Source: Tsuneonella amylolytica (lineage in GTDB: Bacteria > Pseudomonadota > Alphaproteobacteria > Sphingomonadales > Sphingomonadaceae). From it: a stretch of DNA of 64,000 nt. Of this stretch, positions 39,759 to 64,000 are shown in pieces. A program made the translations under genes and the position numbers. Every line of letters starts with the position of its first letter. Within the stretch, counting starts at the first letter, position 1. The notes beneath the pieces are model-generated. The model did no database searches, was not told the DNA's origin, and was given only the letters and a program-made list of their open reading frames with translations. The stretch spans positions 1,798,001 through 1,862,000 of the forward strand of contig NZ_CP032570.1 in NCBI RefSeq assembly GCF_003626915.1, given 5' to 3'.

Positions 39759-39923
39759 TTTGTTCTTCTCACGTTCTCCCAAATAGTCTATAAAAACCGC
39801 AGAAATCCTAGGGAATTGGCCCTCGGATAGTGCCGGACCGTCCCGCGTTTTCCCGGGGGTTCCGCACATTTTTGCGGGCCTTTTGCGGGCTTTGCAAAAA
39901 CCGCATTGAGAAAAGGCCCGCAC

Positions 39924-42059: not shown

Positions 42060-42971
42060 ATGCAGTCCCGAAGTGAAGGTCAGAACACACAATCCCTCGA
42101 AGCAACTGCTCGCCAGCTCTGCAAAAGCCGCGGCGGGCGCTGGTCCGGTTTCAAGGGCATGGCTCGGTGCCCGGCTCACGATGATCGCACTCCCTCGCTC
42201 GGCGTCACGCTGGGCCGACGTGCTATCCTGTTCCATTGCTTTGCCGGGTGCGACCAAGCGAGCGTGATTGACGCTTTCAGAAGGGAGGGGCTTTCGCCCT
42301 CTCAGCTGTTCGACGGTTCTCCGCTGAATGCCGCGGAATCGAAGATTGAGCTATCGCCGTCGCGAAGTGCGCTCCGGACATGGCGCGGCGCCTCCCCCCT
42401 GATCGGCAGCCCGGCCAAAGCTTATCTCGAAGCGCGCGGCATTACGGCTATCTCGCCCGCGCTGCGCTTCAACAGTCGAACGCCTCTCGGACCCAAAGGC
42501 CGCGCGCAATTTCTGCCAGCGATGATTGCAGCCGTCAGCCTTGACGAAGGTCCGATCGCTATTCACCGAACATTTCTCGATGCGGAGGCGCCCAGGCTTG
42601 CCACATTCGACGGTCCCAAGCGCGCACTCGGTGCGCTCCGAGCAGCCGCCGTCCGACTGTTCCCCGCGATCGATGGAGTGCTTGGCATCGCCGAAGGTGT
42701 CGAAAGCGCGCTCTCGGCCCGTGCACTCACCGGCGTTCCATGCTGGGCAACGCTGGGTAATGAGCGCTTTGCGCTCGTCTCGATCCCGCAGAGCGTCACC
42801 GAGCTCCATCTCTTTGTCGATTACGATGCAGGCGGCAAATTGGCGGCGGAACGCGCGCTACGGAGCCATGCGCTCGAAGGCCGGACTATCCATGTCCGGC
42901 GTCCTTCAAAGCGCGAGACCGACTGGAACGACGAACTGGTGAACTGGCTCGCCCGCAAGCAGGCTTCCTAG
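42060..42971 (+). CDS. Primase-like protein: CHC2-type zinc finger plus Toprim domain
   Basis: A 303-residue protein of the DUF7146/Toprim type used by integrative elements and plasmids. The N-terminal zinc finger is C-P-A-H-D-D-R-T-P-S with a later FHCFAGC. A middle helical region follows. The Toprim domain carries the Glu in GIAEGVESALSA and the Asp pair in LHLFVDYDAGG. There is no helicase domain. It may prime or handle element DNA replication. Confidence 0.88.
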   Translation: MQSRSEGQNTQSLEATARQLCKSRGGRWSGFKGMARCPAHDDRTPSLGVTLGRRAILFHCFAGCDQASVIDAFRREGLSPSQLFDGSPLNAAESKIELSPSRSALRTWRGASPLIGSPAKAYLEARGITAISPALRFNSRTPLGPKGRAQFLPAMIAAVSLDEGPIAIHRTFLDAEAPRLATFDGPKRALGALRAAAVRLFPAIDGVLGIAEGVESALSARALTGVPCWATLGNERFALVSIPQSVTELHLFVDYDAGGKLAAERALRSHALEGRTIHVRRPSKRETDWNDELVNWLARKQAS

Positions 42972-43042
42972 AGAAGAGAGAGCTTTGGCCTCGTGATCGG
43001 CAGACGGCTTCGTGCCCGATGCCTCCATCAGGAGAACCCAAA

Positions 43043-46000: not shown

Positions 46001-47275
46001 ACCAACCAGGCTTGCGCGCCGCTGTTCCGACCTGTGACCACGGATGTGAGGGGTGAGCGGCGGTTCATCTCGACGATCGCCCGGCGGCTCGACAGCCTCG
46101 GTGCGCTCACCCGCGGACAGCGGCAAACGGGCGGACAGAACCTGTTCGATCCGGCCGATAATCTCGAAAGCGATTACGCCAGAGACGCGCTGACCCGCTG
46201 GTTCCACCTGCTATACGACGGCAAGCTCGAGGCCACGAGCTTCGCCGGGTTTGTGCGTCAGACCGGTCTGCGGCTCGAAGGCCCCGAGGGTGGTCTTACG
46301 GACGACCTGCCCTCGATCCAACGTTGGCTCAACCGCGTGCTCGCGCTGCGGATTGGGATGCAGAACGCGATCTTCGACGAATATCTTGCTCTGATCGAAG
46401 CGCGCGTAGAGGCCGCCCGCGAAGCGGGAACACTCGATCTCGGGCTCGAAACGGTCAAGGTCGACAGCTGTCGAGTAATTTCGGATCAGATCCTTCGCAG
46501 CGACCCGCTCACCGGTGCTGAAACCCGCCTCCTCTCGCTGGAGATCGAGCGGCACTTGCGGCCGCTGCGCTTCGGGCGGCTCGCGCGACTGAATGACATT
46601 GGCTCGCCCGATGGCATACCCCTGCACAATGCACGCTCCGGCCGCGTGGCGCTCAGCGTTCCCGCGCGCCGTTTGATTGCCGACGACGGCGGTGTGATCG
46701 AGCGGCGGCGTCTGCTGCGTCCGCTCAAATCCGCCAACTGGACCCGCGAGGCGCTCGCCGAAAGCGCTTGGGAGGCCATCGATCCGGCTTCGTTCGAACG
46801 TCTCTGGCGCGCGGAAGAGATCGAAGCCGCGAAAGAGCCGGTCCGCGAACGCGTGCACCTCGCAACCGGGCTGCTACTCCCGGTCTGGAAGCGCCTGCCC
46901 GGCGATCACGTGCGCGTAACCCGTATCGTTTCGGCCGACGGGGCCTCCATCATCGGCCGCGAGGTGGTGGCCGCGGATATCGCCAAGGTGTCGGAGACCT
47001 TCGGCCTCGGCAACTCGGCCTTGCCTACTCAGGGTGAATTGGCCGCTCTCGTCCTGTCTAGCGGCACCGCACAGACCTTGCAGAGCCATGATCCGCTGAT
47101 CGTCAAGCGCAGTCTCGTCGGTGGTGAGCAGCGCATCGAGCTCACTGGCTTCGCGCCCGATCGGCTCGACTGGTACAAGGCCAAAGGCTGCGTCACCGAG
47201 ATCATCCGCTACCGAACGCGCTTGTTCGTGCCTGTGCCCAATGGGGCGGCCATTCTTCAAGCGCTCGCCCCCTGA
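43043..47275 (+). CDS. Strawberry-notch-like NTPase with N-terminal DNA methyltransferase domain
   Basis: A 1410-residue protein. After about 120 residues of uncertain fold comes an N6-adenine-type methyltransferase region: LALEPSAGNGALALW (motif I) and VVLMNPPFARSRERG (motif IV NPPF). Then a linker with repeated Pro/Ala, and a Strawberry-notch superfamily-2 NTPase: FFLGDGTGAGKGRQIASV (Walker A), GVIAFDEAHAMANA (Walker B). The C-terminal helicase half contains IQGLGRTNRTNQAC. It would remodel and perhaps methylate element DNA. Such proteins are core genes of alphaproteobacterial elements. The ATG 43043 is chosen for its CAGGAGA site. Confidence 0.9.
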   Translation: MLQFELLEPDAEPRAHLLPVTIGDRIASRLVDGYHLTRSSISALFAEETGIQSWGTAWSIDDYNDAIEIGALLWLKSHGRITLDTAIHEADARFEWLDTALPARHVRSEAQIELQQFSTPPMLGWLMARAAQLRSCDLALEPSAGNGALALWAAMQGCDLALNEIDPDRRLSLAHLFSDATVTAHDGEVIDHLLTHRPPTVVLMNPPFARSRERGVSAATALRHLRSAFRLSKSGARLVAIMPEGFNASRFASSLSDARLRLDVRIAGAFRRTGTGIRVRMVVFDKAVDDQPVVTAEADDLSDLATLIGRLPPRPRDTPEVPVLTARPATGTLRKPANARPAAPFGTRPAPGEPFEELGYVTLDEPAPVPEQTGIYLPYRPSRVQIGGAPVHPTPLVESIAMGSVAAPKPTVRPKMPADWRTRELLSEAQLETLVYACEAFSHDLPGRFRATQEGTTLEQADDGARYRQGFFLGDGTGAGKGRQIASVIMDRWLDGERRHIWITKNEALLEDARRDWEALGGMRLDIQPLSSWKLGVPVCWSQGILFITYPTLRSGRADDTRLDQILAWTGDDFEGVIAFDEAHAMANAIGSRNARGASKGSEQGMAGLRLQNRLPRARILYASATGASDISNLGYATRLGLWGAATAFPTHEAFTTEIRAGGVAAMELVARDLKAQGLYLSRALSFAGVEYEILEHRLTDAQVAIYDAYAEAWAIIHRNLDEALQATRIVDEDSGDTLNRNAKAAAISIFEGTKQRFFAQLLLSMKLPSLVPAMEESLAVGHSVVVQLVSTAEAMLDRRLADLTPEEREALDIDLSPREYVIDYLAQSFPTRLMQVFTDEDGNLRSEPMSNDDGNPVMCPRAVAARDALIEQLCGLPPIATALDAIIEHFGTGSVAEVTGRTRRLVLGRDGQQRLERRGGSANVAEAQAFMDGAKRILVFSDAGGTGRSYHADLNCENRQRRVHFLLEPGWRADNAIQGLGRTNRTNQACAPLFRPVTTDVRGERRFISTIARRLDSLGALTRGQRQTGGQNLFDPADNLESDYARDALTRWFHLLYDGKLEATSFAGFVRQTGLRLEGPEGGLTDDLPSIQRWLNRVLALRIGMQNAIFDEYLALIEARVEAAREAGTLDLGLETVKVDSCRVISDQILRSDPLTGAETRLLSLEIERHLRPLRFGRLARLNDIGSPDGIPLHNARSGRVALSVPARRLIADDGGVIERRRLLRPLKSANWTREALAESAWEAIDPASFERLWRAEEIEAAKEPVRERVHLATGLLLPVWKRLPGDHVRVTRIVSADGASIIGREVVAADIAKVSETFGLGNSALPTQGELAALVLSSGTAQTLQSHDPLIVKRSLVGGEQRIELTGFAPDRLDWYKAKGCVTEIIRYRTRLFVPVPNGAAILQALAP

Positions 47276-47379
47276 TCAGCGGCAGCACGTCCCACAGCAG
47301 AGAGAAGAGAGTGCCATGGGCTGGCGAACCTTGTGGGATGCACCCGCACCGGTTCGTTCAATCCATCAGGAGACGATCG

Positions 47380-49353
47380 ATGATCCAGTCCATTCCCTTG
47401 AAGAAGCTCGTCCCGAGCCCACGCAACGTCCGGAAGGTGAGCGATGCCACTGCCGATGCACAGCTCAAGGCCGATATCGCGGCCCGCGGCCTCCTCCAGA
47501 ACCTCGTCGTGCGCAAGGCTGCGCGCGGCAAGTTTGAAGTCGAGGCCGGCGGCCGGCGGCTTGCCGCGTTGCAGTCGCTCGCCGAGGACGGCGCAATTCC
47601 CACAACCCACGAAGTGACCTGCCTCGTCATTGAAGGCGACGAATGCGAAGTGCGCGAAGCGAGCCTGGCCGAAAACTTCCAGCGCCTGGCGATGAATCCC
47701 GCTGACGAAGCGCAGGCATTCGCCGCAATCATCGAAGCGGGCGCCACGACCGAGGACGTCGCCCGGCGCTTCGGCCTGACCGTCCGCTTCGTCGAAGGCC
47801 GACTGCGGCTCGCTTCGCTTGCGCCGTGCGTCTTCGAAGCGCTGGCGGAAGGCGCGATCACGCTCGACATGGCCAAGGCCTATGGCGCGGTCTCGGACAC
47901 CGAGCGGCAAGCTCACGTCTTCGCCGAGCTGCAAGATGCCTGGTACCAGATCACGCCCGATACGATCCGACGGATGGTGCTGGACGCGACCGTGCGCGGC
48001 GGCGATCCGCGCGCGATCCTGGTCGGTCGCGAGGCCTATCTCCAGGCCGGCGGGCGGATCGAGCGCGAGCTTTTCGACGACGATGCCAGCGAGAGCTGGG
48101 TCGATATCGCGCTGCTCGAGGGTCTCGCTCACAAGAAAATGGAGGAGGCAGCGAGCGTCAAGGCGCGCGAACTCGGTCTTGCTTGGGTCCGTCCGACGCT
48201 CGGGGCCTATGTCTGCCACGATCTGATCGAGGGGCTCAGCCGCCTTTCCGCCGAGCCGGCCCCGTTGAATGAAGCGGAAGCTGAGGAACTTTCGATACTC
48301 GAGGCAGACTACGACCGTGAAGCGGCAGTCCTCGAGGACGAGGACAGCAGCGAGGAGGAGGTCGCGAGAGCCGAGGAGCAACTGGCCCGCATCGATCGGG
48401 CGATGCGAGCGCTCAATGATCGCCCGCCGGTGCTTGCCGACGATCTGAAGGAAGAAGCGGGGGCGTTCCTGGTCCTGTCGCGCGGTGGCGAGCCTACTCT
48501 TGTTCCGCAGTACTACACGGAAAGCGAGGTGGCACAGCCGGACGAAGGCATCATCGAGCCCGTCGAAGATGGCGGCGATGCGTCGGGCAAGCCTGCAACC
48601 TATTCGCAGCGGCTGCTCGACGAACTGGCGATGCAGCGCCGCGACGTCCTCGCCATCCATCTCGCCAACGACCCCGGCCTGGCGCTCGACCTCATGATCT
48701 TTACGTTGGCCGATGCCGATGGTCACGACTGGCGCGCCAAGAAGGCGGTCACGATCTCTGGGCCGACTGCGAACGGCCCGGTCTCGGGATTTGAAGCCAA
48801 AGATGCTCCGGCGAGTGCGGCGCTAGCGGAGTTCACTGGTTCGCTCGACGAAAGCTGGCGCGCCGGCGCTTCGGACGTCGAGCGATTTGCCGCCTTTCGG
48901 GCACTCCCCGAAGAGGCGCGCAGCCTATGGCTCGGCTTCGTGGTTGCCCGCACGCTCATTGCCAGCCACAACATCGATGCGGAGCGCGGACTCCCACTCC
49001 ACGACGCACTGGGCGCCTTGCTTGAGATCGAGATGGCGCACTGGTGGAGGCCGACGGCTGCGAACTTCTTCGATCGCGTGCCGAAAGCGCGCATCCTCGA
49101 AGCCTTCGATGCCGTGGGCGGGCCCGAGCTTGTCAGCCGCTATGCCGGTTCCAAGAAGGCCGATCTCGCATCGGCTGCCGAACGAATCTTCTCGGGCGAG
49201 TTCATCGGCGAGGCGGAGGTGAAGCAGCAGGCGTTGGCCTGGGTTCCAGCCGTCATGCGTTTCGGCACTCCGAGGGAAGAACCCATCGGCAACGATGAAA
49301 CGTCTGCTGAGTCGGAAGACGCCAACGACGAATTGACCGAGCAAGCTGCCTGA
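47380..49353 (+). CDS. ParB/RepB/Spo0J family protein, large form
   Basis: A 657-residue protein. The ParB N-terminal (CTPase) domain is at residues 1-100: IPLKKLVPSPRNVRK, GLLQNLVVR, EVEAGGRRLAALQ, and EASLAENFQRLAMNPADEAQAF. A helix-turn-helix like ATTEDVARRFGLTVRFVEGRL follows. A long acidic region (about 300-360) and a C-terminal domain without known counterpart follow. No parA is next to it, so a role other than classical partition (element maintenance, nuclease or regulator) is possible. It is co-oriented with, and 104 bases after, the Strawberry-notch gene. Confidence 0.87.
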   Translation: MIQSIPLKKLVPSPRNVRKVSDATADAQLKADIAARGLLQNLVVRKAARGKFEVEAGGRRLAALQSLAEDGAIPTTHEVTCLVIEGDECEVREASLAENFQRLAMNPADEAQAFAAIIEAGATTEDVARRFGLTVRFVEGRLRLASLAPCVFEALAEGAITLDMAKAYGAVSDTERQAHVFAELQDAWYQITPDTIRRMVLDATVRGGDPRAILVGREAYLQAGGRIERELFDDDASESWVDIALLEGLAHKKMEEAASVKARELGLAWVRPTLGAYVCHDLIEGLSRLSAEPAPLNEAEAEELSILEADYDREAAVLEDEDSSEEEVARAEEQLARIDRAMRALNDRPPVLADDLKEEAGAFLVLSRGGEPTLVPQYYTESEVAQPDEGIIEPVEDGGDASGKPATYSQRLLDELAMQRRDVLAIHLANDPGLALDLMIFTLADADGHDWRAKKAVTISGPTANGPVSGFEAKDAPASAALAEFTGSLDESWRAGASDVERFAAFRALPEEARSLWLGFVVARTLIASHNIDAERGLPLHDALGALLEIEMAHWWRPTAANFFDRVPKARILEAFDAVGGPELVSRYAGSKKADLASAAERIFSGEFIGEAEVKQQALAWVPAVMRFGTPREEPIGNDETSAESEDANDELTEQAA

Positions 49354-52628: not shown

Positions 52629-52660
52629 GATTGCCACGGGACAACCTCGTTCCGGCAATC
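52629..52660 (+). repeat. Hairpin in the ardC leader
   Basis: GATTGCC and GGCAATC (52629-52635 with 52654-52660) are perfect complements separated by 18 bases and immediately precede the GGGAGA ribosome site of ardC. Possibly a translation-control element. Confidence 0.6.
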
Positions 52661-52672
52661 GGGAGACACCTT

Positions 52673-53608
52673 ATGTCCAGGTTTGAACGCCGCAGCGGCG
52701 GGCAATCCCCTGCTGCGCAAATCACCTCTGTGATTATCGAGAAACTCGAGCAGGGAACCAGACCATGGGTAAAGCCATGGCGCGGGGTACCGGTATCACG
52801 ACCCCTGCGCAGTTGCGGCACGCCCTATCGGGGCATGAACACCTTCTGGCTGTGGATGATCGCCGAAGCGGCCGGGTTTCTGTCGCCCTACTGGATGACA
52901 TACCGGCAATGCCAGAAGCTCGGCGGGCAGGTCCGCAAGGGCGAGAAGTCGACGATCGCGATCTTCTACAAGAGCTACGACAAGCAGGTGGAGCGCGAAG
53001 ATGGCGAAGAAGGCACCGAGACGCGGCGTGTCCTGAAGGCCTATGCGGTCTTCAACGCCGACCAGTGCGATGGCTTGCCTGAGATGTACCGCGCCAGGCA
53101 TGAACTCGAGCCGGTCGAGCCTGCGGGGCGGGAAGAGCGGCTCGACGCTTTCTTTTCAGAGGTGGGCGCTGAACTTCGGCATCAAGGAGCCGAAGCCTAC
53201 TACGAGCCCATCCTGGATCGGATTACGATGCCGCCGGCGACGCTGTTCAATGGCTACGACCACTACTACGCAACGCTGGCGCACGAACTCTCGCACTGGA
53301 CCGGACATGGCTCTCGCCTAGGTCGCGATCTCAAGAACCGCTTTGGAAGCGGATCCTACGCGGCCGAGGAACTGGTGGCGGAGTTGTCCGCCGCGATCCT
53401 GGGCGCCGAGCTCGGTCTGCCGGTCGCGCATCTCGACCACCATGCGAGCTACATCGCGCATTGGCTTGAGCTTCTGAAATCCGATGATCGAGCCATGCTC
53501 ACGGCAGCCGCCAAGGCGGAAGAGGCTGCGAGCCTCATCCTGAAGCTCGGAGGGCGTTCGGGCGCCGGTAGCGAGGCTGCGGCAGCCGATCTCGCCGAAG
53601 CGGCTTGA
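52673..53608 (+). CDS. ardC: ArdC family antirestriction protein
   Basis: A 311-residue protein. The N-terminal ssDNA-binding ArdC domain has ITSVIIEKLEQGTRPWVKPWRG, PYRGMNTFWLW and EKSTIAIFYKSY. The C-terminal zincin domain has the HExxH motif in ATLAHELSHWTGH. ArdC proteins protect incoming single-stranded element DNA against restriction in the new host. ATG 52673 has GGGAGAC upstream. Confidence 0.94.
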   Translation: MSRFERRSGGQSPAAQITSVIIEKLEQGTRPWVKPWRGVPVSRPLRSCGTPYRGMNTFWLWMIAEAAGFLSPYWMTYRQCQKLGGQVRKGEKSTIAIFYKSYDKQVEREDGEEGTETRRVLKAYAVFNADQCDGLPEMYRARHELEPVEPAGREERLDAFFSEVGAELRHQGAEAYYEPILDRITMPPATLFNGYDHYYATLAHELSHWTGHGSRLGRDLKNRFGSGSYAAEELVAELSAAILGAELGLPVAHLDHHASYIAHWLELLKSDDRAMLTAAAKAEEAASLILKLGGRSGAGSEAAAADLAEAA

Positions 53609-55165: not shown

Positions 55166-55211
55166 AGCTCGACCCGCACGGTCCCTCTTCGCGGGGCCTG
55201 CCGGAGCCAGA

Positions 55212-55408
55212 TTTCCTGCCTGTCCTGTTCGCTCGTGCGGGCCCTGGACCGGTCCGGTTCCGCCGCAACCCGCGCAAGGCTGCGGCCCGTGTGGCCCGCG
55301 CCAGCCTTGCCTTGCGGGGTTTCCCGCTGCGCGGTGCGGCGGCCCCCTCGACCCGGTCCCTTTTGGGCCCGGCGAACAGGCCGCAGGAAACTTCTCTTCC
55401 CCTGCGGC
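55212..55408 (+). ncRNA. Long self-complementary leader before the DUF2493 gene
   Basis: Between the RES gene and the DUF2493 gene. Arms TTTCCTGCCTGTCCTGTTCGC (55212-55232) and GCGAACAGGCCGCAGGAAA (55372-55390) pair with a small bulge; inside them GGGCCC and ACCGG elements pair on both sides, and CCGCCGCA and AAGGCTG elements match too. A second hairpin GCCGCAGG with CCTGCGGC (55380-55387 with 55401-55408) overlaps the right arm and would compete. It precedes AGGAGG and the start. A structured RNA leader or a protein or transfer site; unproved. Confidence 0.55.
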
Positions 55409-55436
55409 TGTCGCCTTCGCTCAGGAGGAATGACCC

Positions 55437-56375
55437 ATGTACGACAGCTTCACCGCCCAGCTTGCCGGACTCGATCTGACCGGCTTTTCGGTTCAACCCG
55501 CACCTTTCAACGAAACCGATTTTCCCGCCGAACAGGCGAGCGCGCAAACCCTCGCGGCCGTCTGGTCGGACATGTTCGCCTTGTTCGCCGACACCGCGCT
55601 CGAGGCCGATGCCGAGGACATCGCCTGGGGCTTCGTCAATCTCTTCCACCGCGCGGCGACCCGCAAATCCGCGCAGGTCGATCGCGCGAGCGACGAGATC
55701 CGGGCGCTGCTTGCCGCGGCCGATGGCTCGGAAATCCACTCGAGCAACCTCGAAGAGCAGGTCGAGCGCGCGCAAGCAGCCGAAGCCAGCATGCTCGCTT
55801 TCGAGCACATGCGCGAGGTCGCGGCGATGCTGTACCGCGAAGAGACCGGGGCATCCTGGAAGCCGATGACGGGGTCGCGCATAGCGCAGGGAAGGAACCT
55901 CACCTCTGCGGTCATCGATGCGCGCGATTTCCTCAAGGTCCGCTCAGAACGTCGGCGAGCCGCACTCACGCCCGAAGGCACCGCCGTGGTCTTCGCCGGA
56001 GGACGCGCGAGCTTCGCCACGACCGAGGAGGCGAAGAGCTATGCGGACAACATCTGGGCCACGCTCGACCGAGTGCGTGAGCAGGTGCCCGATATGCTCC
56101 TCGTCCATGGCGGCGACGGCAAGGGCGCCGATCGGCTTGCAGCCGCTTGGGCCGAACGCCACGAGGTACAGCAACTGACCTTCGGTCTCGATCGCAGGCT
56201 GGGTGCCCGGGCCGGGTTCAAGCGCAACGAGCAGATGCTGGCGATGGCCCCGCGCTATGTGATCGCCTTTCCCGGCAATGGCGTCACCGAGCGTCTCGTC
56301 ATCGAAGCCAAGGCACACCGCATCACGGTGGTCGATCGCCGCGGTCCGCTGGGCACTAAGCCTTCCGGCAGCTAA
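55437..56375 (+). CDS. DUF2493 domain protein
   Basis: A 312-residue protein: an N-terminal helical part (FNETDFPAEQASAQTLAAVW, DMFALFADTALEADAEDI) and a C-terminal Rossmann-like DUF2493 domain of the SLOG type: VVFAGGRASF, DMLLVHGGDGKGADRLAAAWA and YVIAFPGNGVTERLVIEAK. The glycine loops may bind nucleotides or nucleotide-derived signals. DUF2493 proteins are common near ssb in these elements; exact role unknown. AGGAGG is upstream. Confidence 0.87.
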   Translation: MYDSFTAQLAGLDLTGFSVQPAPFNETDFPAEQASAQTLAAVWSDMFALFADTALEADAEDIAWGFVNLFHRAATRKSAQVDRASDEIRALLAAADGSEIHSSNLEEQVERAQAAEASMLAFEHMREVAAMLYREETGASWKPMTGSRIAQGRNLTSAVIDARDFLKVRSERRRAALTPEGTAVVFAGGRASFATTEEAKSYADNIWATLDRVREQVPDMLLVHGGDGKGADRLAAAWAERHEVQQLTFGLDRRLGARAGFKRNEQMLAMAPRYVIAFPGNGVTERLVIEAKAHRITVVDRRGPLGTKPSGS

Positions 56376-56584
56376 GCGCCCCGCTTGCTGCCGTTCAGGG
56401 GATGTCGTCGCATTCCCCCAGCAGACAATGAGGTGACCTCGACCGCCGCTGTGGGAGCGGCAGAAACTCGCGACCAGAATATCGCCATTCAGGATCGCGT
56501 GGGTGTTGTAACTGAACGGCAATCGAAATCGAGCTCAGGAAGCCATTGAATGTGCGAATTCAATCGTGTGGTCTCTTCAGAGAC

Positions 56585-57451
56585 CTAGGCGAACAGCTTC
56601 AAGGCAAAGCTCATCGCCCGGCCTGTCCCGGCCGTCAGAGAACCTGCATGGTCCTCGCCTTCGAATGCTACATATTGCACTTCGCCGAGAGGCAAAGTCG
56701 ACAAGTCCTCGGCGAACTCACGTGCGGCATCTACCATGCGAACCCATCGAATGGTGGCGCGCAGATCCTCCAAGTCCAAGCCGGCTGGCGCGGTTTGCGG
56801 ATCGTCCTGCTCAGTCGATCCGACGCCGACCAGCACTCGAGGCCGCGCGCTGGTCTCAGCCAACCGCTTCACGAACTGCTGACGCTCTTTGAGCACGGCA
56901 AACTCATTCCACCACAATGAAGGGGCGATGATCGAAAACACCTCAAACGCTTCCGGCCGCTTCAGAAGCGCGTAGGCTGCGAATAGCCCGCCGAGTGAGA
57001 ACCCATGCAGCATGAGCCGATCGGCCGACGCCTCGGGCACGCGGTCCCGCACCGCCGGCGCCAGCTCGTCTATGAGAAAGGCGAGGAACGCGTCTGCCCC
57101 GCCATATTCCGTGCCGGTCAGGGAGGTCATCGGGTTGCGGGCGTCCCTCGGGGTTTCGGGCGTGAAATCGACTGTCCGTGCCTGCAGGCTGTCGAACACG
57201 CCTCCAGCATAACCCACCCCCACGATGACGGCTGAATGAAGCGCTCCCATGGCCGAATACATGCTGACGCGCTCGACCGCGGTGCCGAACGTTAGAGAAG
57301 AGTCGAGCACAAAGAGTATCGGACAATTCTCAGGAGACCTGCCGGTCGCAAGGAGCGGCAGGGGCCGGGCCAAGCTGATATCGAAGGAGCGGCCCGTTTG
57401 GGCTGCCTCAATCGAAAAGCGTTCTGCTCGTTCGAGAGTGGCGGTCGGCAT
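56585..57451 (-). CDS. Alpha/beta hydrolase, esterase D / Fes-IroE type
   Basis: A 288-residue hydrolase: FDISLARPLPLL, ILFVLDSSLTFG, catalytic Ser in LMLHGFSLGGLFAAY, FSIIAPSLWWNE, and His in EGEDHAGSLTAG. The putative-esterase family includes Fes/IroE enzymes that open the lactone ring of enterobactin-type siderophores and D-formylglutathione hydrolases. There is no signal peptide, so it acts in the cytoplasm. Three ATGs lie in a row (57457, 57454, 57451); the last has best spacing from GGAG. Confidence 0.88.
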   Translation of the reverse strand: MPTATLERAERFSIEAAQTGRSFDISLARPLPLLATGRSPENCPILFVLDSSLTFGTAVERVSMYSAMGALHSAVIVGVGYAGGVFDSLQARTVDFTPETPRDARNPMTSLTGTEYGGADAFLAFLIDELAPAVRDRVPEASADRLMLHGFSLGGLFAAYALLKRPEAFEVFSIIAPSLWWNEFAVLKERQQFVKRLAETSARPRVLVGVGSTEQDDPQTAPAGLDLEDLRATIRWVRMVDAAREFAEDLSTLPLGEVQYVAFEGEDHAGSLTAGTGRAMSFALKLFA

Positions 57452-57463
57452 CATCATTCTCCT

Positions 57464-57485
57464 AAAGAGAGCAGCTTCTCTCTTT
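57464..57485. promoter_or_regulatory. Candidate TetR operator between esterase and tetR genes
   Basis: A perfect inverted repeat AAAGAGAG-CAGCTT-CTCTCTTT lies immediately upstream of the esterase ribosome site and 53 bases before the tetR start. Symmetric 8-base arms with a 6-base centre suit a dimeric TetR protein. Confidence 0.7.
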
Positions 57486-57537
57486 GCAATAGCTCGTGAT
57501 CGCGGGTATGAGAAGAGCCAATGGGGTGAAGGATTGG

Positions 57538-58110
57538 ATGCCGAAACGCAGCCGGGAGTATATGGACAGTCAGCGGCTTCGGTTCTGCGAGGCGGCGATG
57601 GCTTGTTTCAGTCGCAACGGCGTGGTGGCGACCAATCTCACCGATATCTGCGACGAGACTGGCCTCAGCATGGGCGCGCTCTACAAGCATTTCGCCAGCC
57701 GCGACGAGCTGTTGGTCGCGGTTTTGCAGCTCAGGCTTGAGCACCGGAACGCGCTGCTTCGCGGCGAGACTTGGGCCGAGTTGAGGGACGCCCTCCTTCG
57801 CTATCGGAACGATTTGGATGGATTGCCTTTCTGGCGCGAGCTACAGGCCATGGCCGACTGGAACGAGCGCTTGGCCGGCATCCGGGTCGAGCAGGCGGGC
57901 CTGATCCTTGCCCAGATCAAGGAGCAACTCGCGCGCTACGTCGCTACCGGCGAAATTAGCCCGGCGTTCGACCTGTCGCGGACGACGCAGCTGGTCAGCA
58001 TCATATTTGAGGGTTCGCTCACCAGTGTGAGGTCGTCGGGCGATCTCCACATCGTTTTGGAAGACCTGGCCGACTATCTTGACCTGGCCGTGGGGGTGAT
58101 CAGCGACTGA
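57538..58110 (+). CDS. TetR/AcrR family regulator
   Basis: A 190-residue repressor. The N-terminal helix-turn-helix region reads FCEAAMACFSRNGVVATNLTDICDETGLSMGALYKHFASRDELL. The remaining helices form a ligand-binding domain that I cannot assign. It is divergent from the esterase and presumably represses it from the inverted repeat at 57464-57485. ATG 57538 has GAAGG upstream; an upstream GTG at 57496 is in frame. Confidence 0.93.
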   Translation: MPKRSREYMDSQRLRFCEAAMACFSRNGVVATNLTDICDETGLSMGALYKHFASRDELLVAVLQLRLEHRNALLRGETWAELRDALLRYRNDLDGLPFWRELQAMADWNERLAGIRVEQAGLILAQIKEQLARYVATGEISPAFDLSRTTQLVSIIFEGSLTSVRSSGDLHIVLEDLADYLDLAVGVISD

Positions 58111-58133
58111 AGCGTCAGCGGTCGAAGATTTCG

Positions 58134-59615
58134 TCAGTCGCCGAGTCCGCTTTCTAATCCAGCCAGCCAGCGGTCGAGCAGAAATACGCCGAACCCGGTC
58201 GCGCCAGGCCCCGAGCGCGCAGTGCGCCGAGTGGCCCAAGCCGTGCCGGCGATATCGATATGTGCCCATTTCGTCCCGTGCGCGAATCGTTCGAGAAACT
58301 TAGCGCCCGCGGTCGATGAGCCGCCGCCCACCCCGAGAAACCCTACCGCGCCGAAGTTGGAGACATCGGCGACTGCGGAGTCGACGAGGTAATCCTGTGA
58401 CGCGCTCAGCGGCATTCGCCATAGCGGCTCGCCGGCCACTTCGCCGGCACGCATCAACGCATTGGCCAAGCCGGCATCGGAGGCATAGAGGCCAGCAAAC
58501 TCCTCATGAAGGACGCCGGCTATCATCCCCGTTAATGTTGCGATGTCGACGACGTACGCGGGCGCGTAGTTCTCAATTGCATAGGTGATCCCGTCAGCCA
58601 GAACGAGCCGCCCCTCGGCATCGGTGTTGACAATTTCCACGGTGAGCCCGGCGAGCGAGCGCACCACATCGCCAGGGCGGGCGCTACGACCATCGATGAC
58701 GTTCTCTGCCATGGGAACGATGACAACGATATTGGTGCGCGCCTTACGGGAAGCGGCGAGTTCGATTGCGCCGAGCACCGACGCGGCGCCCCCCATATCA
58801 AACTTCATCTTCTCGATAATTGGCCGCGTCTTGATGTTGAGCCCGCCTGCATCGAAGGTCAGCCCCTTACCGACAAAAGCTGCGTCCCAGCCTTCGCGGG
58901 CAGGGTCACCACGCCACTCGGCTATGACCATCCGCGGTTCGTGTTCAGAAGAGCGGCCCACGGCCAACAGCGCGCCGGTACCCAGCTCTTCCAGCTCCGC
59001 CGGTCCGAGCACGCGTACCGAGACGCCATGCCTCTCAAGCGCCGATGCGGCTTCATCTGCGAACACAGCCGGGGTCAGCAGATTAGCGGGTTGCTCCACC
59101 CAGGCTCGCGCTCGGTTGATTGCTTCGGAGACACGCTGCGCCTCCTCGGCATGGACCATATCGGCTGAGTTGATCACCAGCCGCTCTGGTTGAAAGCCTG
59201 GCACCGCATCGCTTCGGCCCTGCTCGAGGCGATAGCTGTGGAGCAGTGCTCCTGTGAGCAATGACTGGAGAGCGTCGGGGCCGCCCAGATCATCGCAGCC
59301 CGGCAAGCGCACGCTCGCGATCCGCAGGGTCCGCATGGCGTCCACCAAGTGTCCGCCGGCGGCAAGCCATCGCTCGGTTGTGTCCGTACCCTCCGCACCA
59401 GTGCCGACCACAAGCAACCGCGGCAAGGCGTCGTCGCCCACGATGTCGAGCCAACGACCTTGATCCGGCGCAAAGTCCGCTGAGCGGATGGCGGCCGAGG
59501 CGCGGGGCCGCTGAGGATCAGCGCCGATTATCTCGCCCGATCCTCGCGCCGCAAATAAGGCCGTTGTCGACGGCGTCTCGTGCGAGACCATCATGAGGGT
59601 GTGCCAACTCGTCAT
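58134..59615 (-). CDS. Leucyl aminopeptidase family (M17)
   Basis: A 493-residue M17 peptidase. Metal ligands and catalytic residues: FVGKGLTFDAGGLNIK (Lys, Asp), KMKFDMGGAASV (Asp), and the NTDAEGRLVL signature (Asp, Glu, catalytic Arg). It releases N-terminal amino acids in the cytoplasm. It converges with the TetR gene and diverges from the TonB receptor gene. The ATG 59615 is kept; a second ATG pair eight codons in is possible. Confidence 0.93.
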   Translation of the reverse strand: MTSWHTLMMVSHETPSTTALFAARGSGEIIGADPQRPRASAAIRSADFAPDQGRWLDIVGDDALPRLLVVGTGAEGTDTTERWLAAGGHLVDAMRTLRIASVRLPGCDDLGGPDALQSLLTGALLHSYRLEQGRSDAVPGFQPERLVINSADMVHAEEAQRVSEAINRARAWVEQPANLLTPAVFADEAASALERHGVSVRVLGPAELEELGTGALLAVGRSSEHEPRMVIAEWRGDPAREGWDAAFVGKGLTFDAGGLNIKTRPIIEKMKFDMGGAASVLGAIELAASRKARTNIVVIVPMAENVIDGRSARPGDVVRSLAGLTVEIVNTDAEGRLVLADGITYAIENYAPAYVVDIATLTGMIAGVLHEEFAGLYASDAGLANALMRAGEVAGEPLWRMPLSASQDYLVDSAVADVSNFGAVGFLGVGGGSSTAGAKFLERFAHGTKWAHIDIAGTAWATRRTARSGPGATGFGVFLLDRWLAGLESGLGD

Positions 59616-59692
59616 CGCTTCACTAATACCCCTTGCACCGATAAAAGAAAGAGGACATAATCTTTTTATTGGATTGAGATTGGAGGGTGTCG

Positions 59693-61966
59693 ATGAAACC
59701 TCAAGCTGGGCGATTCACCGGAATTTCCGTTACCGCGTTTCTCGTCAGCCTATCTGCGGTGCCTGCCTGGGGGCAGGCGTCCACGCCGGCTACAGCACCC
59801 TCGCAGGAACCGCAGCCGCCGGCCGCAGCCGCGACCGGTCCGGCCGAAACAGCCGATATCGTCGTGACCGCGCAAAAGCGGTCGGAGCGCCTGCTGGACG
59901 TTCCCGCGTCCGTCACCGCCCTTTCGAACGATACGCTGCTGGCGCGGGGCGCAGTCCGCTTCGAGGATTACCAAGCATACATTCCAGGCCTGTCGACCAC
60001 GGCAGTCGCTCCCGGCTACAATCAGATCAATATCCGCGGAGTGACGACGGGTGCCAACCAGCTTTCGGCTACGGTGGGCACATATTTCGACGAGTCGCCG
60101 ACCAATTCGAGCACCGCGGCCGCAATCGGCAACAGGCTGACGCCGGACCCCGACCTGCTCGACATTGCCCGGGTCGAGGTGCTGCGCGGCCCGCAGGGGA
60201 CGCTTTATGGGGCCAACGCACTCGGCGGTGTCGTCAAATACGTATTCGTTCGCCCCGAGTTGAATGAGGTGCACGGACAGGCGCAGCTCGGCATCTCGTC
60301 GATCGCGCACGGCGAGACGGGCTATATTGCCCGCGCTGCAATCGGAACGCCGCTCGTCCAGGACACGCTTGGCGTGCGGGTCAGCGGCTTCTACACGCGC
60401 GATCCAGGTTTCATCGACAATGTCGCGACCGGCGAAGAAGACGTCGATACCTCGACCAACTTCGGCGGTCGGGTTGCGCTGCTGTGGAGGGCGAGCGACT
60501 GGCTGACCGCAACAGCTTCAGCTCTCTACCAGAAGCGCGATACGCAGGGGTTTCCGTCCGAAACCGTTTCTTCGACGACGCTTGAACCTGGCGCCGGCGA
60601 ATATCGGCAATCCGTTGGCACCGACGAGTTCGTCAGAACGCGCTACCAGCTTTACAACCTCACGCTCGACGCCGACCTCGAGTTTGCGAATGTGGTTTCA
60701 GCGACGAGCTACGGACGACAGCAGGTCGACCTGGCCTTCGACTACAGCCCGAATCTGGGAACGGTTCTCGATCTGATCGGCATTCCAGGTGTCCCGTTTG
60801 TCTCGCTGCCGATCGACAATGAGGTGAAGAAGTTCACCCAAGAACTCAGGTTGGCCTCGCCCACCGGGAGGATTTTCGAATACATAGTTGGTGGTTACTA
60901 CACGCACGAGCGCTCCCGCTCGCTCAACGGCGGCACGGCTTTCTTGGCGTCAGGCGAACCGGCGCCTGCCCCGATCAACCCGCTCCAGGAAGTCGACCTC
61001 CGGAACCGCTACCGCGAGTTCGCCGTGTTCGCGAACGGGACGATCAACTTCACCGATCGGTTCAGCGTGCAGGCCGGAGGGCGGTGGAGCCGCAACAAGC
61101 AGCGCTCGAGCGAGCCGTTGGAAGGACTATTGTTTGGACCCCTCGCCGGAACGATCATAGCCAACCGATCGTCCGAAAGTGCCTGGACCTTCGCAGTGTC
61201 GCCTCAGTTCAAGATCACCCGCGATCTCAATGTTTATGCACGCGTAGCAAAGGGGTTCCGTCCGGGCGGCGCGAACCTCGTCCTTCCCGGTGGCGGCGGC
61301 ACGCCCACCTACAATTCGGACTCGCTGATCAACTACGAGACGGGCATCAAGGCTTCGCTGTTCGATCGGCGGCTCAGCCTCTCGACCGCAGCGTTCTGGA
61401 TTGATTGGGAGGACATTCAGACGACCGCCAAGGACGCCATTGGGTTTAACTTCCTGATCAACGGCGGGCGCGCGCGAAGCCGCGGCATCGAAACCGAGGC
61501 GCGGTGGAACGCTGACGGCCTCAGCCTTGGCGCGAACTTGAGCTATATCGACGCCGAGACGCGCGAGGCGATACCGGCCGTCGGCGCGCAGCGCGGTGAT
61601 CGCCTGCCCTATAGCCCGCGCTGGTCAGGCGCGATCACCGCCGACTATGAAGTCCCGGTCGACGGTAACATTCGGCCGACGATCGGCGGCGGCGTCCGCT
61701 ACACCGGCTCACGGCAGGCTTACTATTCGCTGCCGACTGCGACCAATCCCGGCGACCTGCGACTGCCTGGCTATGCGCTTTTCGACCTTCGGGCTGGTCT
61801 TCGCTGGGACCGCTACGAAGTGAGCGTGTTTGCGCAGAACATCACGGATAAGCGCGCGATACTTTCGGCGCAGACGGAGGGAGCAAACCCGTTAACCGGC
61901 CTGGACGCACGGGCGACCATTGCGCGTCCTCGGACGATTGGCGTCACCTTCGGAGCGGGCTTCTGA
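59693..61966 (+). CDS. TonB-dependent receptor (complete)
   Basis: A 757-residue outer-membrane receptor. Signal peptide to PAWGQA, then a plug with DIVVTAQKRSERLLDVPASVTAL (TonB-box-like), VEVLRGPQGTLYGANALGGVV, and a barrel ending LDARATIARPRTIGVTFGAGF with terminal Phe. This type (OMR with QKR-LLDVP) is usual in sphingomonad nutrient uptake. ATG 59693 lies after GGAGGG. It is divergent from the aminopeptidase and 48 bases before the hydroxy-acid oxidase gene, so probably in one transcript with it. Confidence 0.95.
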   Translation: MKPQAGRFTGISVTAFLVSLSAVPAWGQASTPATAPSQEPQPPAAAATGPAETADIVVTAQKRSERLLDVPASVTALSNDTLLARGAVRFEDYQAYIPGLSTTAVAPGYNQINIRGVTTGANQLSATVGTYFDESPTNSSTAAAIGNRLTPDPDLLDIARVEVLRGPQGTLYGANALGGVVKYVFVRPELNEVHGQAQLGISSIAHGETGYIARAAIGTPLVQDTLGVRVSGFYTRDPGFIDNVATGEEDVDTSTNFGGRVALLWRASDWLTATASALYQKRDTQGFPSETVSSTTLEPGAGEYRQSVGTDEFVRTRYQLYNLTLDADLEFANVVSATSYGRQQVDLAFDYSPNLGTVLDLIGIPGVPFVSLPIDNEVKKFTQELRLASPTGRIFEYIVGGYYTHERSRSLNGGTAFLASGEPAPAPINPLQEVDLRNRYREFAVFANGTINFTDRFSVQAGGRWSRNKQRSSEPLEGLLFGPLAGTIIANRSSESAWTFAVSPQFKITRDLNVYARVAKGFRPGGANLVLPGGGGTPTYNSDSLINYETGIKASLFDRRLSLSTAAFWIDWEDIQTTAKDAIGFNFLINGGRARSRGIETEARWNADGLSLGANLSYIDAETREAIPAVGAQRGDRLPYSPRWSGAITADYEVPVDGNIRPTIGGGVRYTGSRQAYYSLPTATNPGDLRLPGYALFDLRAGLRWDRYEVSVFAQNITDKRAILSAQTEGANPLTGLDARATIARPRTIGVTFGAGF

Positions 61967-62014
61967 TCTCCGAGTCTCGGAGGACGAAGCCTCGAGTTGA
62001 CGCGGAGCGGTACG

Positions 62015-63181
62015 ATGAGGGCCTTGCGGCGCGCGAATAACATTGCCGACTTGCGCGCGCTGGCCCGCCGAAGACTGCCGCGTCCGATATTCGACTATAT
62101 TGACGGCGGTGCCGACGACGAGGTGACGCTCAGGCGTAACGCAGCGGCATTCGCGCAGTACGAGCTGGTGCCGGACGTGTTGAACGACGTGTCGCGGATC
62201 AGGACCGGGACGACGTTGTTCGGCGAGCGGATCGCATGGCCGTTGATGCTTGCGCCGACGGGGTTGACCCGCATGTTCCACGGCCACGCCGAGCTGGCAG
62301 TGGCGCGCGCGGCGGCCAGGCATGACCTGCTCTACAGTCTGTCCACCCTGGGAACGACGCGGCTCGAAGCACTGGCGGAGACGTTTGGCGGTCCCAAGGT
62401 GTTCCAGATCTACATCTTCAAGGATCGTGGGCTCACGACCGAGTTCGTGGCGCGATGTAAGGAAGCGGGGTTCCATGGGCTCGCGCTGACCGTCGACACT
62501 CCGGTAGCAGGTAACCGCGAACGCGACCGGGTTAACGGCCTTTCGCTTCCGCCCCGCCTGACGCTGAAATCGATGCTGAGCTTCGCGCTTCACCCCCGAT
62601 GGTCATTGCCTGCGCTCACCGGATCTCGGTTCGACCTCGCGAACGTCAGTCACAAGGTCGATGCGCTCGCGGCCGGGCCGATGAGCCTGTTCGACTATAT
62701 CGGCGGTCAATTCGACCGCGCTGTAACTTGGCGCGACGTGGAATGGCTTGCTGCCGAGTGGGGCGGCCCGCTTGCAATCAAAGGCGTCATGACGCCCGAA
62801 GATGCCAAACGGGCGATCGGTTCGGGCGCTACCGGCGTGATGATTTCCAACCATGGCGGCCGCCAGCTCGACGGAGCTCCTGCTCCGATCGATCAAATCG
62901 GACTAGTTCGTGATGCAATCGGCGAAGGCCCCGATGTGATTTGTGATGGCGGTGTGCGGCGCGGCTCCGACGTGGTGAAGGCGCTGGCGCTTGGCGCGAC
63001 CGCTTGCTCGATCGGTCGTCCTTACCTTTACGGGTTGGCGGCCGCCGGCGAAGCAGGCGTGAACCGTGCGCTGTCCCTCCTCTTTGAAGAGTTCGAGCGA
63101 ACCCTGATCCTTGCCGGCGTCAATGACATTACACAGCTCGGTTGCAGACATATTAGACGATTGAACGAGCTTTGGTGCTGA
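62015..63181 (+). CDS. FMN-dependent alpha-hydroxy-acid oxidase/dehydrogenase
   Basis: A 388-residue FMN TIM-barrel enzyme of the lactate dehydrogenase (LldD)/glycolate oxidase family. Landmarks: LPRPIFDYIDGGADDEVTLRRN, WPLMLAPTGLTRMFH, LALTVDTPVAGNRERD, GPLAIKGVMTPEDA (Lys) and ISNHGGRQLDGAPAPID (catalytic His and Arg). It oxidises an L-alpha-hydroxy acid to a 2-oxo acid. The start ATG 62015 fits the family and has GAGCGG upstream. Confidence 0.93.
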   Translation: MRALRRANNIADLRALARRRLPRPIFDYIDGGADDEVTLRRNAAAFAQYELVPDVLNDVSRIRTGTTLFGERIAWPLMLAPTGLTRMFHGHAELAVARAAARHDLLYSLSTLGTTRLEALAETFGGPKVFQIYIFKDRGLTTEFVARCKEAGFHGLALTVDTPVAGNRERDRVNGLSLPPRLTLKSMLSFALHPRWSLPALTGSRFDLANVSHKVDALAAGPMSLFDYIGGQFDRAVTWRDVEWLAAEWGGPLAIKGVMTPEDAKRAIGSGATGVMISNHGGRQLDGAPAPIDQIGLVRDAIGEGPDVICDGGVRRGSDVVKALALGATACSIGRPYLYGLAAAGEAGVNRALSLLFEEFERTLILAGVNDITQLGCRHIRRLNELWC

Positions 63182-63383
63182 TTTGACGCACTTAGAGCAC
63201 CCCGCAACTTACCGTGTAAGCGTATAACCCTTTGAATGTTAGCGATGAGGTAAATACCGAAGGTTATCTTCGTTCAGTTAGCCGTCTCAAAGCGTTCGAT
63301 CCGCTTCCGCCCCAGTAAGCGACGATCAATCCCGTCGCGAACCAACGCCGCTGTCCCCTGTGAAATAGAGCTATGTCTTCGTT

Positions 63384-63656
63384 ATGGACCTCGATGACCT
63401 GCTTCGACGCTACTTTTCATCCACCGATCTATCGGAGGTCAGTCCCGACGTGCTGGCCTCGGGTTTGGAGCGCTGTCAGGTAGATCTCGGCCTCGAAAAG
63501 GACCGCGGCAAGCGCTTTGCCCTGTGGGCGCTGCTTTACATGCTTGGCTCTGCGCCTGACCTTGAGGCGGCGCTCAAAGATGCTGACGATCGGGAGGCGG
63601 CCCGCAATTTCATGGACCTGCTGGCGGCTAGCGAGGGTGAGGGGCAGGGCGGATAG
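63384..63656 (+). CDS. Small acidic hypothetical protein (90 aa)
   Basis: A 90-residue protein: MDLDDLLRRYFSSTDLSEVS, LASGLERCQVDLGLEKDRGKRFALWALLYMLGSAPDL, and EAARNFMDLLAASEG. Helical and acidic; no family recognised. The 200 bases before it (63182-63383) are lower in GC than the surroundings, and I see no gene in them. It lies just before the ssb leader. Confidence 0.72.
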   Translation: MDLDDLLRRYFSSTDLSEVSPDVLASGLERCQVDLGLEKDRGKRFALWALLYMLGSAPDLEAALKDADDREAARNFMDLLAASEGEGQGG

Positions 63657-63712
63657 GAGAGCGGCGCCGCGTGCGCCTTCGCCAGGCCACCCGAACCCAA
63701 TCCGGCTTTTTC

Positions 63713-63900
63713 GCGAACAGTCCTGAATCAGGTCAGCTGAGGCCGGCAACGCCTTTGCTTCGGGCCGTGTTGGCAGCTGCGCTGCCTGCCCGCACCACCC
63801 CTTGCAAACGGCGTTTCCCTTGGGCGCGGGCGCGCCCTGCGGTGCAGTCCTCCCATGCCCTGCTTCTTTCAGCTGTTCGCAAGCCGGAAATGGTTTCCGG
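63713..63900 (+). ncRNA. Long self-complementary leader before ssb
   Basis: Bounded by GCGAACAG (63713-63720) and CTGTTCGC (63873-63880), then a perfect seven-base hairpin CCGGAAA-TGG-TTTCCGG (63884-63900) just before the ssb ribosome site. Inside, GGGCCGTGTTGGC (63762-63774), CTTGC (63801), GTTTCCC (63813) and GCGGTGC (63839) occur in the same order as close matches in the DUF2493 leader. It may be a structured RNA or a protein/transfer site. Confidence 0.52.
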
Positions 63901-63925
63901 TTTGGCACACCGAAGGACCAGTCAC

Positions 63926-64000
63926 ATGACCAATCTCGTAATCCTGACCGGCCGTCTCGCCCGCGATCCCGAATCCCGCGAGACCAAGGGCGGAACCTCC
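63926..64000 (+). CDS. ssb: Single-stranded DNA-binding protein, 5' part
   Basis: The first 25 codons are visible (MTNLVILTGRLARDPESRET and five more) and the gene runs out of the window. The opening VILTGRLARDPE matches the Ssb OB-fold start, in the form carried by integrative elements. GAAGGA lies about 10 bases upstream. It would coat element DNA during replication or transfer. Confidence 0.88.
   Translation, partial: MTNLVILTGRLARDPESRETKGGTS

What the first reader, a model, noticed from the sequence alone, without database searches (positions are those of the whole stretch)
55212..63900. Two related GC-rich structured leaders in front of DUF2493 and ssb
Two leaders of about 180-200 bases (55212-55408 and 63713-63900) precede two different element-core genes. 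Each is bounded by GCGAACAG and CTGTTCGC in inverted orientation, each can fold along almost its whole length, and both carry GGCC(C)GTGT(T)GGC, CTTGC, GTTTCCC and GCGGTGC in the same order. Two copies within 9 kb in front of maintenance genes suggest either a riboregulator family, binding sites for an element-encoded protein, or single-stranded (ssi/leading-strand type) promoters that work when the element enters a new cell. The outer arms lie in opposite polarity in the two copies, which is odd for one RNA fold and may favour a DNA-level function.
Basis: partly seen in the sequence, partly recalled or inferred. Interest (0 to 1): 0.72.

Follow-up and report, generated by a model that had tools for sequence, protein, structure and literature searches.

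The report
Folded DNA leaders before ssb
Two related folded sequences sit in front of two early genes of a mobile DNA element, and comparison with relatives suggests that they fold as single-stranded DNA, on the strand that is read to make those genes, much like the single-strand promoters known from the F plasmid.

Summary
Both leaders carry one covarying core (22 of 37 pairs change on both sides). It recurs in 121 of 397 genomes of the family; the 130 distinct leaders examined precede ssb (97) or DUF2493 (33). No Rfam match.

The decisive question was which strand folds. After composition correction the template strand is favoured in 18 of 20 leader clusters, in 3 of 3 Frpo sequences, and in 2 of 15 cobalamin riboswitches. 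In pairs predicted on both strands, A-C exceeds G-U on the coding strand (50:28), the reverse of RNase P RNA (13:64). Apical triloops are GNA, the ultrastable DNA mini-hairpin, on the template strand only: 100 of 128 versus 0 in ssb cores; F Frpo1 and Frpo2 carry one too. The genes point at the transfer genes, as in F.

Best reading: an Frpo-like single-stranded-DNA promoter/initiator family, unrelated in sequence to Frpo, used when the element enters as ssDNA. The mRNA riboregulator reading is disfavoured. Promoter boxes, nic site and activity are unproven; the window's own ssb leader is neutral after correction (z -0.23).

The parts
55170..55436 (.). DUF2493 leader: structured intergenic region; proposed functional strand is the minus (template) strand
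   Evidence: folds: RNA + strand z -4.46, DNA - strand z -4.82; corrected strand asymmetry z +1.17 toward template
55257..55345 (+). conserved core (three-way junction: outer P0, long P1/P2 arm, P3 hairpin), DUF2493 copy
   Evidence: R1 E 2.2e-11; covariation
55225..55232 (+). 5' outer arm CTGTTCGC
   Evidence: sequence
55372..55379 (+). 3' outer arm GCGAACAG
   Evidence: sequence
55380..55408 (.). hairpin GCCGCAGG/CCTGCGGC between the core and the ribosome-binding site
   Evidence: sequence
55437..56375 (+). DUF2493 gene (Pfam YAcAr, SLOG-family)
   Evidence: E 2.5e-20
63700..63925 (.). ssb leader; proposed functional strand is the minus (template) strand
   Evidence: RNA + strand z -2.78; DNA - strand z -3.46; corrected asymmetry z -0.23, i.e. 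neutral for this one copy
63738..63853 (+). conserved core, ssb copy (extra hairpin in the P1/P2 loop; GCA triloop on the minus strand)
   Evidence: R1 E 2.5e-20; triloop
63713..63720 (+). 5' outer arm GCGAACAG
   Evidence: sequence
63873..63880 (+). 3' outer arm CTGTTCGC
   Evidence: sequence
63884..63900 (.). hairpin CCGGAAA-TGG-TTTCCGG before the ribosome-binding site; its 5' arm can alternatively pair with the CCGGCTT upstream of the whole structure
63926..64000 (+). ssb gene start (continues past the window)
   Evidence: Pfam SSB E 7e-27
63384..63656 (+). 90-aa ORF between DUF2493 and ssb, no leader of this kind found before it
   Evidence: no NCBIfam match
52631..53608 (+). ArdC-type anti-restriction protein, same strand
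47311..49353 (+). ParB-like protein, same strand
43019..47275 (+). strawberry-notch helicase, same strand
42060..42971 (+). DUF7146/Toprim protein, same strand (DnaG zinc-ribbon match below its cut-off)

Best explanation
The two leaders are single-stranded-DNA elements of the conjugative leading region, functionally like Frpo/ssi of F-type plasmids. When the element enters a recipient as a single strand, that strand (inferred to be the template strand of ssb and DUF2493) folds into a long hairpin with a conserved three-way-junction core, capped by DNA-type GNA triloops. The folded DNA gives the transcription machinery a duplex-like start site, so ssb (which coats the incoming strand) and DUF2493 are made before the second strand exists; conversion to double-stranded DNA removes the fold and switches it off. 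Shown here: homologous covarying structure, gene association, template-strand bias, GNA triloops, orientation toward the transfer genes. Inferred: that the template strand is the transferred strand, that RNA polymerase is the partner, and that the effect is transcription.
For: Covariation: 156 cells changed on both sides against 59.8 in shuffles and at most 53 in slid structures. 130 of 130 distinct leaders assigned to ssb or DUF2493 (nine by eye, one of them at a contig end); start codon 62-76 nt (ssb) or 68-94 nt (DUF2493) after the core where the script picked the right ORF. Template strand favoured after composition correction in 18 of 20 cluster representatives (mean z 1.79), as for 3 of 3 Frpo sequences (two of F, one homologue: z 1.80, 2.95, 2.80), against 2 of 15 cobalamin riboswitches. 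RNAalifold stronger on the template strand in 6 of 6 clusters and in Frpo2 (-215.9 v -179.1), weaker in both RNA controls. Pairs predicted on both strands, G-U:A-C on the coding strand: leaders 28:50, Frpo2 2:7, RNase P 64:13, cobalamin 28:16. GNA triloops template/coding: 100/0 of 128 (ssb cores), 29/0 of 59 (DUF2493 cores); 13 of 20 clusters template, 0 of 20 coding; F Frpo1 and Frpo2 each have a GAA triloop on a 7-bp stem. GNA mini-hairpins are exceptionally stable DNA (PMC4686876, passages read). The element has a MobF relaxase (above cut-off) and a TraD-like coupling protein (F-type TraD model below its cut-off); leader genes lie on the same strand and point to them, as ssb and its neighbours point to traM in F. 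In three plasmids, two of them closely alike, DUF2493 and ssb point to mobC-relaxase. In F, Frpo2 lies upstream of ssb and is needed for its early expression (PMC9849209, passages).
Against: No promoter-like site in either leader, though the same scan finds none in real Frpo2 either. The core is GC-rich and lacks an A+T-rich UP-like stem. The model has no hit in the F leading region. The window ssb leader is neutral after correction (z -0.23) and L021 is negative (-1.13). The raw strand difference is confounded: coding-sequence controls favour the same strand raw (20 of 20) but not after correction (7 of 20). As a corrected control RNase P is weak: 4 of 10 favour the template strand (mean z -0.90). 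GNA can be enriched by shared descent: a coding control had 19 on one strand, 1 on the other; 7 of 20 clusters have none. The strand-symmetric pair count is weak (A-C 91, G-U 71), and 50:28 is p 0.017 without allowing for relatedness. Nic site and direction of transfer were not determined; in pSWIT02 no relaxase gene was annotated in the about 90 kb fetched, and none in the 41 kb of OTU29MARTA1, so their layout is untested.
Confidence: 0.6

Rival explanations
1. A cis-regulatory mRNA leader (riboswitch-like or protein-bound) that controls translation of ssb and DUF2493, for example SSB feedback as for T4 gp32 (recalled).
For: Covarying core with highly conserved unpaired stretches; tight spacing to the start codon; a hairpin before the ribosome-binding site whose 5' arm can also pair upstream, mutually exclusive (ssb 73 of 92 at p<=0.05, mostly one cluster; DUF2493 2 of 28).
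Against: Coding strand folds less well than the template strand after correction (18 of 20 clusters); A-C exceeds G-U on the coding strand; few GNRA/UNCG tetraloops but many GNA triloops on the other strand; no Rfam match.
Confidence: 0.15
2. A priming site (ssi / primosome assembly or primase recognition) for second-strand synthesis, possibly used by the element's own Toprim protein.
For: Same strand evidence; a DUF7146/Toprim gene lies on the same strand upstream; Frpo was described for both transcription and primer RNA synthesis (title of ref. 6 in PMC11541004).
Against: Does not explain why copies sit 62-94 nt upstream of a start codon in the same orientation.
Confidence: 0.12
3. An antisense RNA transcribed from the opposite strand that pairs with the ssb and DUF2493 leaders.
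For: The same template-strand bias would be expected.
Against: Loops are DNA-type GNA triloops rather than RNA-type GNRA/UNCG (ssb cores: GNRA 2, UNCG 1 of 28 tetraloops on that strand); no promoter-like site found on either strand.
Confidence: 0.06
4. Double-strand binding sites or cruciforms for an element-encoded protein.
For: Palindromic hairpins before the ribosome-binding site.
Against: Compensatory changes keep pairing, not sequence; cruciforms would show no strand bias.
Confidence: 0.05

Closest known systems
Frpo1/Frpo2 of F and the ssi sequences of ColIb-P9 (single-stranded DNA promoters)
   Same: Non-coding, upstream of ssb and other leading-region genes, more than one copy per element, long hairpin favoured on the template strand, GAA triloop on that strand; papers PMC9849209 and PMC11541004 (passages)
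   Different: No hit of the model in the F leading region; GC-rich, conserved three-way-junction core instead of an A/T-rich apical stem; no visible -35/-10; found in sphingomonad-family genomes
STAXI motif (Rfam RF01728)
   Same: Structured motif near ssb and anti-restriction genes; its authors considered a single-stranded-DNA role (PMC2864571, passages)
   Different: STAXI is a tandem pseudoknot listed for Enterobacteriales that its authors judged more likely RNA; the Rfam search gives no match here
Riboswitches / protein-bound mRNA leaders
   Same: Position, conserved unpaired nucleotides, covarying stems
   Different: Opposite strand bias and loop types

Membership tests
Frpo/ssi single-stranded DNA promoters | Sequence similarity to known Frpo/ssi | tested here: not met
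   R1 finds nothing in the F leading region L249; blastn of the two leaders against 72,556 plasmid records gives no match and one match (Aurantiacibacter)
Frpo/ssi single-stranded DNA promoters | Upstream of ssb / leading-region genes, several copies | tested here: met
   130 of 130 before ssb or DUF2493; two per element here
Frpo/ssi single-stranded DNA promoters | Stable fold of the template (T-)strand | tested here: met
   18 of 20 clusters after correction, same direction as Frpo; the window ssb copy alone is neutral
Frpo/ssi single-stranded DNA promoters | Template strand is the transferred strand | tested here: inconclusive
   Gene layout agrees; nic site not mapped
Frpo/ssi single-stranded DNA promoters | -35/-10 boxes and A+T-rich UP element in the fold | tested here: inconclusive
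   None found, but none found in Frpo2 either
Frpo/ssi single-stranded DNA promoters | Transcription from a single-stranded template | not testable with these tools
   needs in vitro or in vivo assay
cis-regulatory structured RNA | Coding-strand fold and G-U excess | tested here: not met
any Rfam family | Score above gathering threshold | tested here: not met
   nothing near threshold
STAXI | RF01728 match | tested here: not met

The most novel reading that the evidence does not exclude
Alphaproteobacterial conjugative elements carry a widespread class of single-stranded-DNA start elements, in several families unrelated in sequence to each other and to Frpo, built from a conserved folded DNA core with DNA-specific GNA triloops, placed before ssb, DUF2493 and DUF736, that switch on establishment genes only while the element is single-stranded. 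DUF2493 is preceded by template-strand-biased structure in 66 of 77 loci across Alphaproteobacteria.
Probability: 0.45. Interest if true: 0.85.

Novelty: new variant of a known kind. Interest (0 to 1): 0.74.

Why it matters
The survey of leading regions that I saw started from five known Frpo/ssi sequences and from E. coli promoter boxes (PMC11541004, passages). A family with neither, shared by an element with a MobF relaxase and by MOBP plasmids, would show that expression from incoming single-stranded DNA is more general, would help explain why ssb sits where it does, and gives a sequence-independent test (corrected template-strand fold bias plus GNA triloops) to find more.

Tried and rejected
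A pseudoknot GCRCC x GGUGC looked attractive on 34 sequences but breaks in distant members where GGTGC becomes GGTGG together with G-to-C at the paired P0 position. The inner pairing GUGU/GCRC (columns 33-36/93-96 of A2) shows no change on both sides and is broken in some members (A-A, U-U), so those nucleotides are more likely unpaired and conserved. The upstream/downstream strand-exchange idea is statistically good for ssb leaders but not for DUF2493 leaders and is left unexplained. Presence of a hairpin before the start codon is not special in itself (121 of 130; coding control 82 of 126). The raw energy difference between strands was not used alone, since composition explains part of it.

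Paper searches for prior description; I saw listings with abstract starts, capped, and no title there names a sphingomonad or alphaproteobacterial single-strand promoter. Searches were for GNA hairpins. Passages were read in PMC11541004, PMC9849209, PMC2864571, PMC4686876 and PMC11292364; no paper was read in full. T4 gp32 feedback is recalled.
Full report
OBSERVATION. Both leaders exist at the stated places and fold better than shuffles. Blast of the ssb leader and the DUF2493 leader over 197 relatives found matches in 31 and 21 genomes at E<=0.001; the weakest of these are short and may be chance. Aligning 34 cores from both leader types gave one consensus: an outer stem P0 closing on GC/GC, a long arm P1 starting AACC/GGTT, an internal stem P2, conserved stretches GGCCGTGTTG and CCCGCRCCA (with an extra hairpin between them in ssb leaders), then GTTTCCC, a third hairpin and CGGTGC. 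22 of 37 pairs have changes on both sides; 156 such cells against 59.8 in shuffles and at most 53 when partners are slid. Later members show G-C to C-G, A-U and U-G at the P0 pair next to the junction.

DISTRIBUTION. A covariance model (R1) finds the two known copies in the own genome and nothing else below E 0.1, hits in 121 of 397 genomes of the same family, 59 of 296 in the order, all 59 in the same family, and 3 of 385 in the class, one of them outside the family (G801, E 8.4e-5, upstream of an ssb). These searches overlap in genomes and used stricter filters. Up to eight copies are reported per genome. Of 166 extracted copies, 130 are distinct; 97 precede ssb and 33 DUF2493 (121 by an automatic motif, nine by eye). 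By look of their first residues the SSB proteins are diverse while the core stays recognisable. The model was trained on leaders of these two genes, but the search itself is blind to genes. Not every DUF2493 gene in the family has this leader: in the 57 named loci searched, which include sphingomonads, no hit lies before DUF2493.

WHICH STRAND FOLDS. A leader that works as mRNA should fold on the coding strand and tolerate G-U there. I compared both strands. RNAalifold energies are stronger on the template strand in 6 of 6 leader clusters (75, 18, 7, 5, 5 and 4 sequences), weaker in cobalamin riboswitches (29 sequences) and RNase P RNA (30 sequences) of the same family. Pairs predicted from both strands have G-U 28 and A-C 50 on the coding strand, against 64:13 (RNase P) and 28:16 (cobalamin). 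Counting with strictly Watson-Crick-defined helices gives a weaker A-C 91, G-U 71. Single-sequence folding favours the template strand raw in 97 of 97 ssb and 30 of 32 DUF2493 leaders, the sense strand in 30 of 30 RNase P and 22 of 29 cobalamin sequences; but composition explains part of this, since coding-sequence controls favour the template strand too (20 of 20 raw). After dinucleotide-shuffle correction, 22 of 25 and 19 of 25 sampled leaders favour the template strand, against 5 of 20 cobalamin and 4 of 10 RNase P sequences (mean z 1.40, 0.97, -0.67, -0.90). With one representative per cluster it is 18 of 20 (mean z 1.79) against 2 of 15 cobalamin riboswitches. The window DUF2493 leader is +1.17, the window ssb leader -0.23. 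The core alone folds at -17.1 (template) and -13.3 (coding).

FRPO CONTROL. The F-plasmid leading region and eight Frpo2 homologues behave like the leaders: RNAalifold -215.9 on the template strand, -179.1 on the coding strand, template better in 9 of 9 raw, shared-pair G-U 2, A-C 7, corrected z 1.80 and 2.95 for Frpo2 and Frpo1 of F and 2.80 for a homologue.

DNA-TYPE LOOPS. On the template strand the triloops of stems of five or more pairs are GNA in 100 of 128 cases in ssb cores (81 of 97 leaders); in DUF2493 cores (stems of four or more) 29 of 59, in 29 of 33 leaders; none is GNA on the coding strand. GNA makes up 0.106 of template trinucleotides in the cores; among 43 distinct triloop hairpins 22 are GNA. 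By cluster, 13 of 20 have it on the template strand and 0 on the coding strand. The RNA controls instead show GNRA tetraloops on their sense strand (cobalamin 23 v 1, RNase P 72 v 8). GNA and GNNA mini-hairpins are described as extraordinarily stable DNA structures (PMC4686876, passages). F Frpo1 and Frpo2 each carry a GAA triloop on a 7-bp stem on the template strand. This argues for DNA rather than for an antisense RNA. A caution: a coding-sequence control shows 19 v 1 on one strand, so shared descent can mimic such a bias.

CONTEXT. To the right of ssb on the same strand lie a TraD-like coupling protein (F-type model below its cut-off) and a TrwC/MobF relaxase; to the left on that strand lie Toprim, strawberry-notch, ParB, ArdC, RES and DUF2493 genes. 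A small minus-strand DUF6437 gene lies between ssb and traD, where I would place oriT (inference). F has a similar layout: anti-restriction, ssb, ParB-like and psiB genes on the strand that leads to traM (the place of oriT there is recalled). pSPHCH01, the Sphingobium sp. CAP-1 plasmid p1 and pCFD-1-2 show DUF2493 and ssb pointing at mobC-relaxase. R1 located two leaders each in pSPHCH01, pSWIT02 and the OTU29MARTA1 plasmid; CAP-1 p1 and pCFD-1-2 were not searched. For pSWIT02 and OTU29MARTA1 no relaxase gene was annotated in the stretches fetched. Published work found, among the 300 most prevalent leading-region gene families, SSB genes exclusively on the T-strand (PMC11541004, passage) and Frpo2 needed for early ssb expression in F (PMC9849209, passage).

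WIDER PATTERN. DUF2493 homologues occur in 696 of 72,556 plasmid records. In 77 of 80 fetched alphaproteobacterial loci (three left out) the 300 nt before the gene have mean z -4.46 (template) and -3.13 (coding); corrected asymmetry favours the template strand in 66 of 77, coding-sequence control 7 of 20. The sample holds many close Rhodobacterales relatives (72 distinct upstream regions). Of eight plasmid loci folded one by one, four favour the template strand (z 3.54, 3.13, 2.17, 1.02) and four do not (S. meliloti -0.27, Mesorhizobium -0.06, Rhizobium -1.86, Sphingomonas sp. R1 -0.44). R1 was run on 57 of the 80 loci and on these eight plasmid loci; it gave no significant match before their DUF2493 genes. 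It matched 1.0-1.3 kb downstream, before an ssb (L319, E 4.3e-9) and, as a shortened core with weak E-values (0.0037-0.051), in six Rhizobiales loci, plus one Rhizobium plasmid (E 0.0011). That short form ends 61 nt before a gene that the plasmid record annotates as DUF736, with an ATGG-loop hairpin between; all 7 favour the template strand after correction. 38 of 77 upstream regions share TTCCTCGCG, which suggests at least one further family.

WHAT REMAINS OPEN. No -35/-10 was recognised, which is uninformative because Frpo2 also fails that scan. The nic site, the partner protein and activity are unknown. The hairpin between core and ribosome-binding site, with its alternative upstream partner in ssb leaders, is unexplained.

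Noticed in passing
L267:1148-1458, L268:1152-1449, L269:1182-1461, L271:1150-1437: A second, sequence-unrelated set of very strong hairpins before DUF2493 in Rhodobacterales, Caulobacterales and Rhizobiales plasmids, with A/T-rich inner stems in several by look, and a TTCCTCGCG motif in 38 of 77 related loci.
   Followed up: partly
L272:3562-3619, L346:4646-4703, L329:4399-4455, L351:4624-4681, L324:4484-4538, L344:4643-4697, L347:4622-4679: Shortened form of the core before a DUF736-type gene in Rhizobiales, start codon 61 nt downstream, with an ATGG-loop hairpin in between.
   Followed up: partly
window 63884-63900 and related leaders: Loop of the hairpin before the ribosome-binding site is TGG or ATGG in 84 of 121 leaders with such a hairpin; shared by descent in part, function unknown.
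   Followed up: partly
window 39672-39755 and 39906-41141: tRNA gene directly followed by an integrase-like ORF (name recalled from its look, not searched): probable insertion site of the element.
   Followed up: no
window 54088-55165: Xre/RES toxin-antitoxin pair directly upstream of the DUF2493 leader (RES; Xre models below their cut-offs).
   Followed up: no
window 56585-63181: About 6.6 kb of other genes (not searched for families) separate DUF2493 from the 90-aa ORF and ssb; in several relatives the two leaders are only about 1.5-2.5 kb apart.
   Followed up: no
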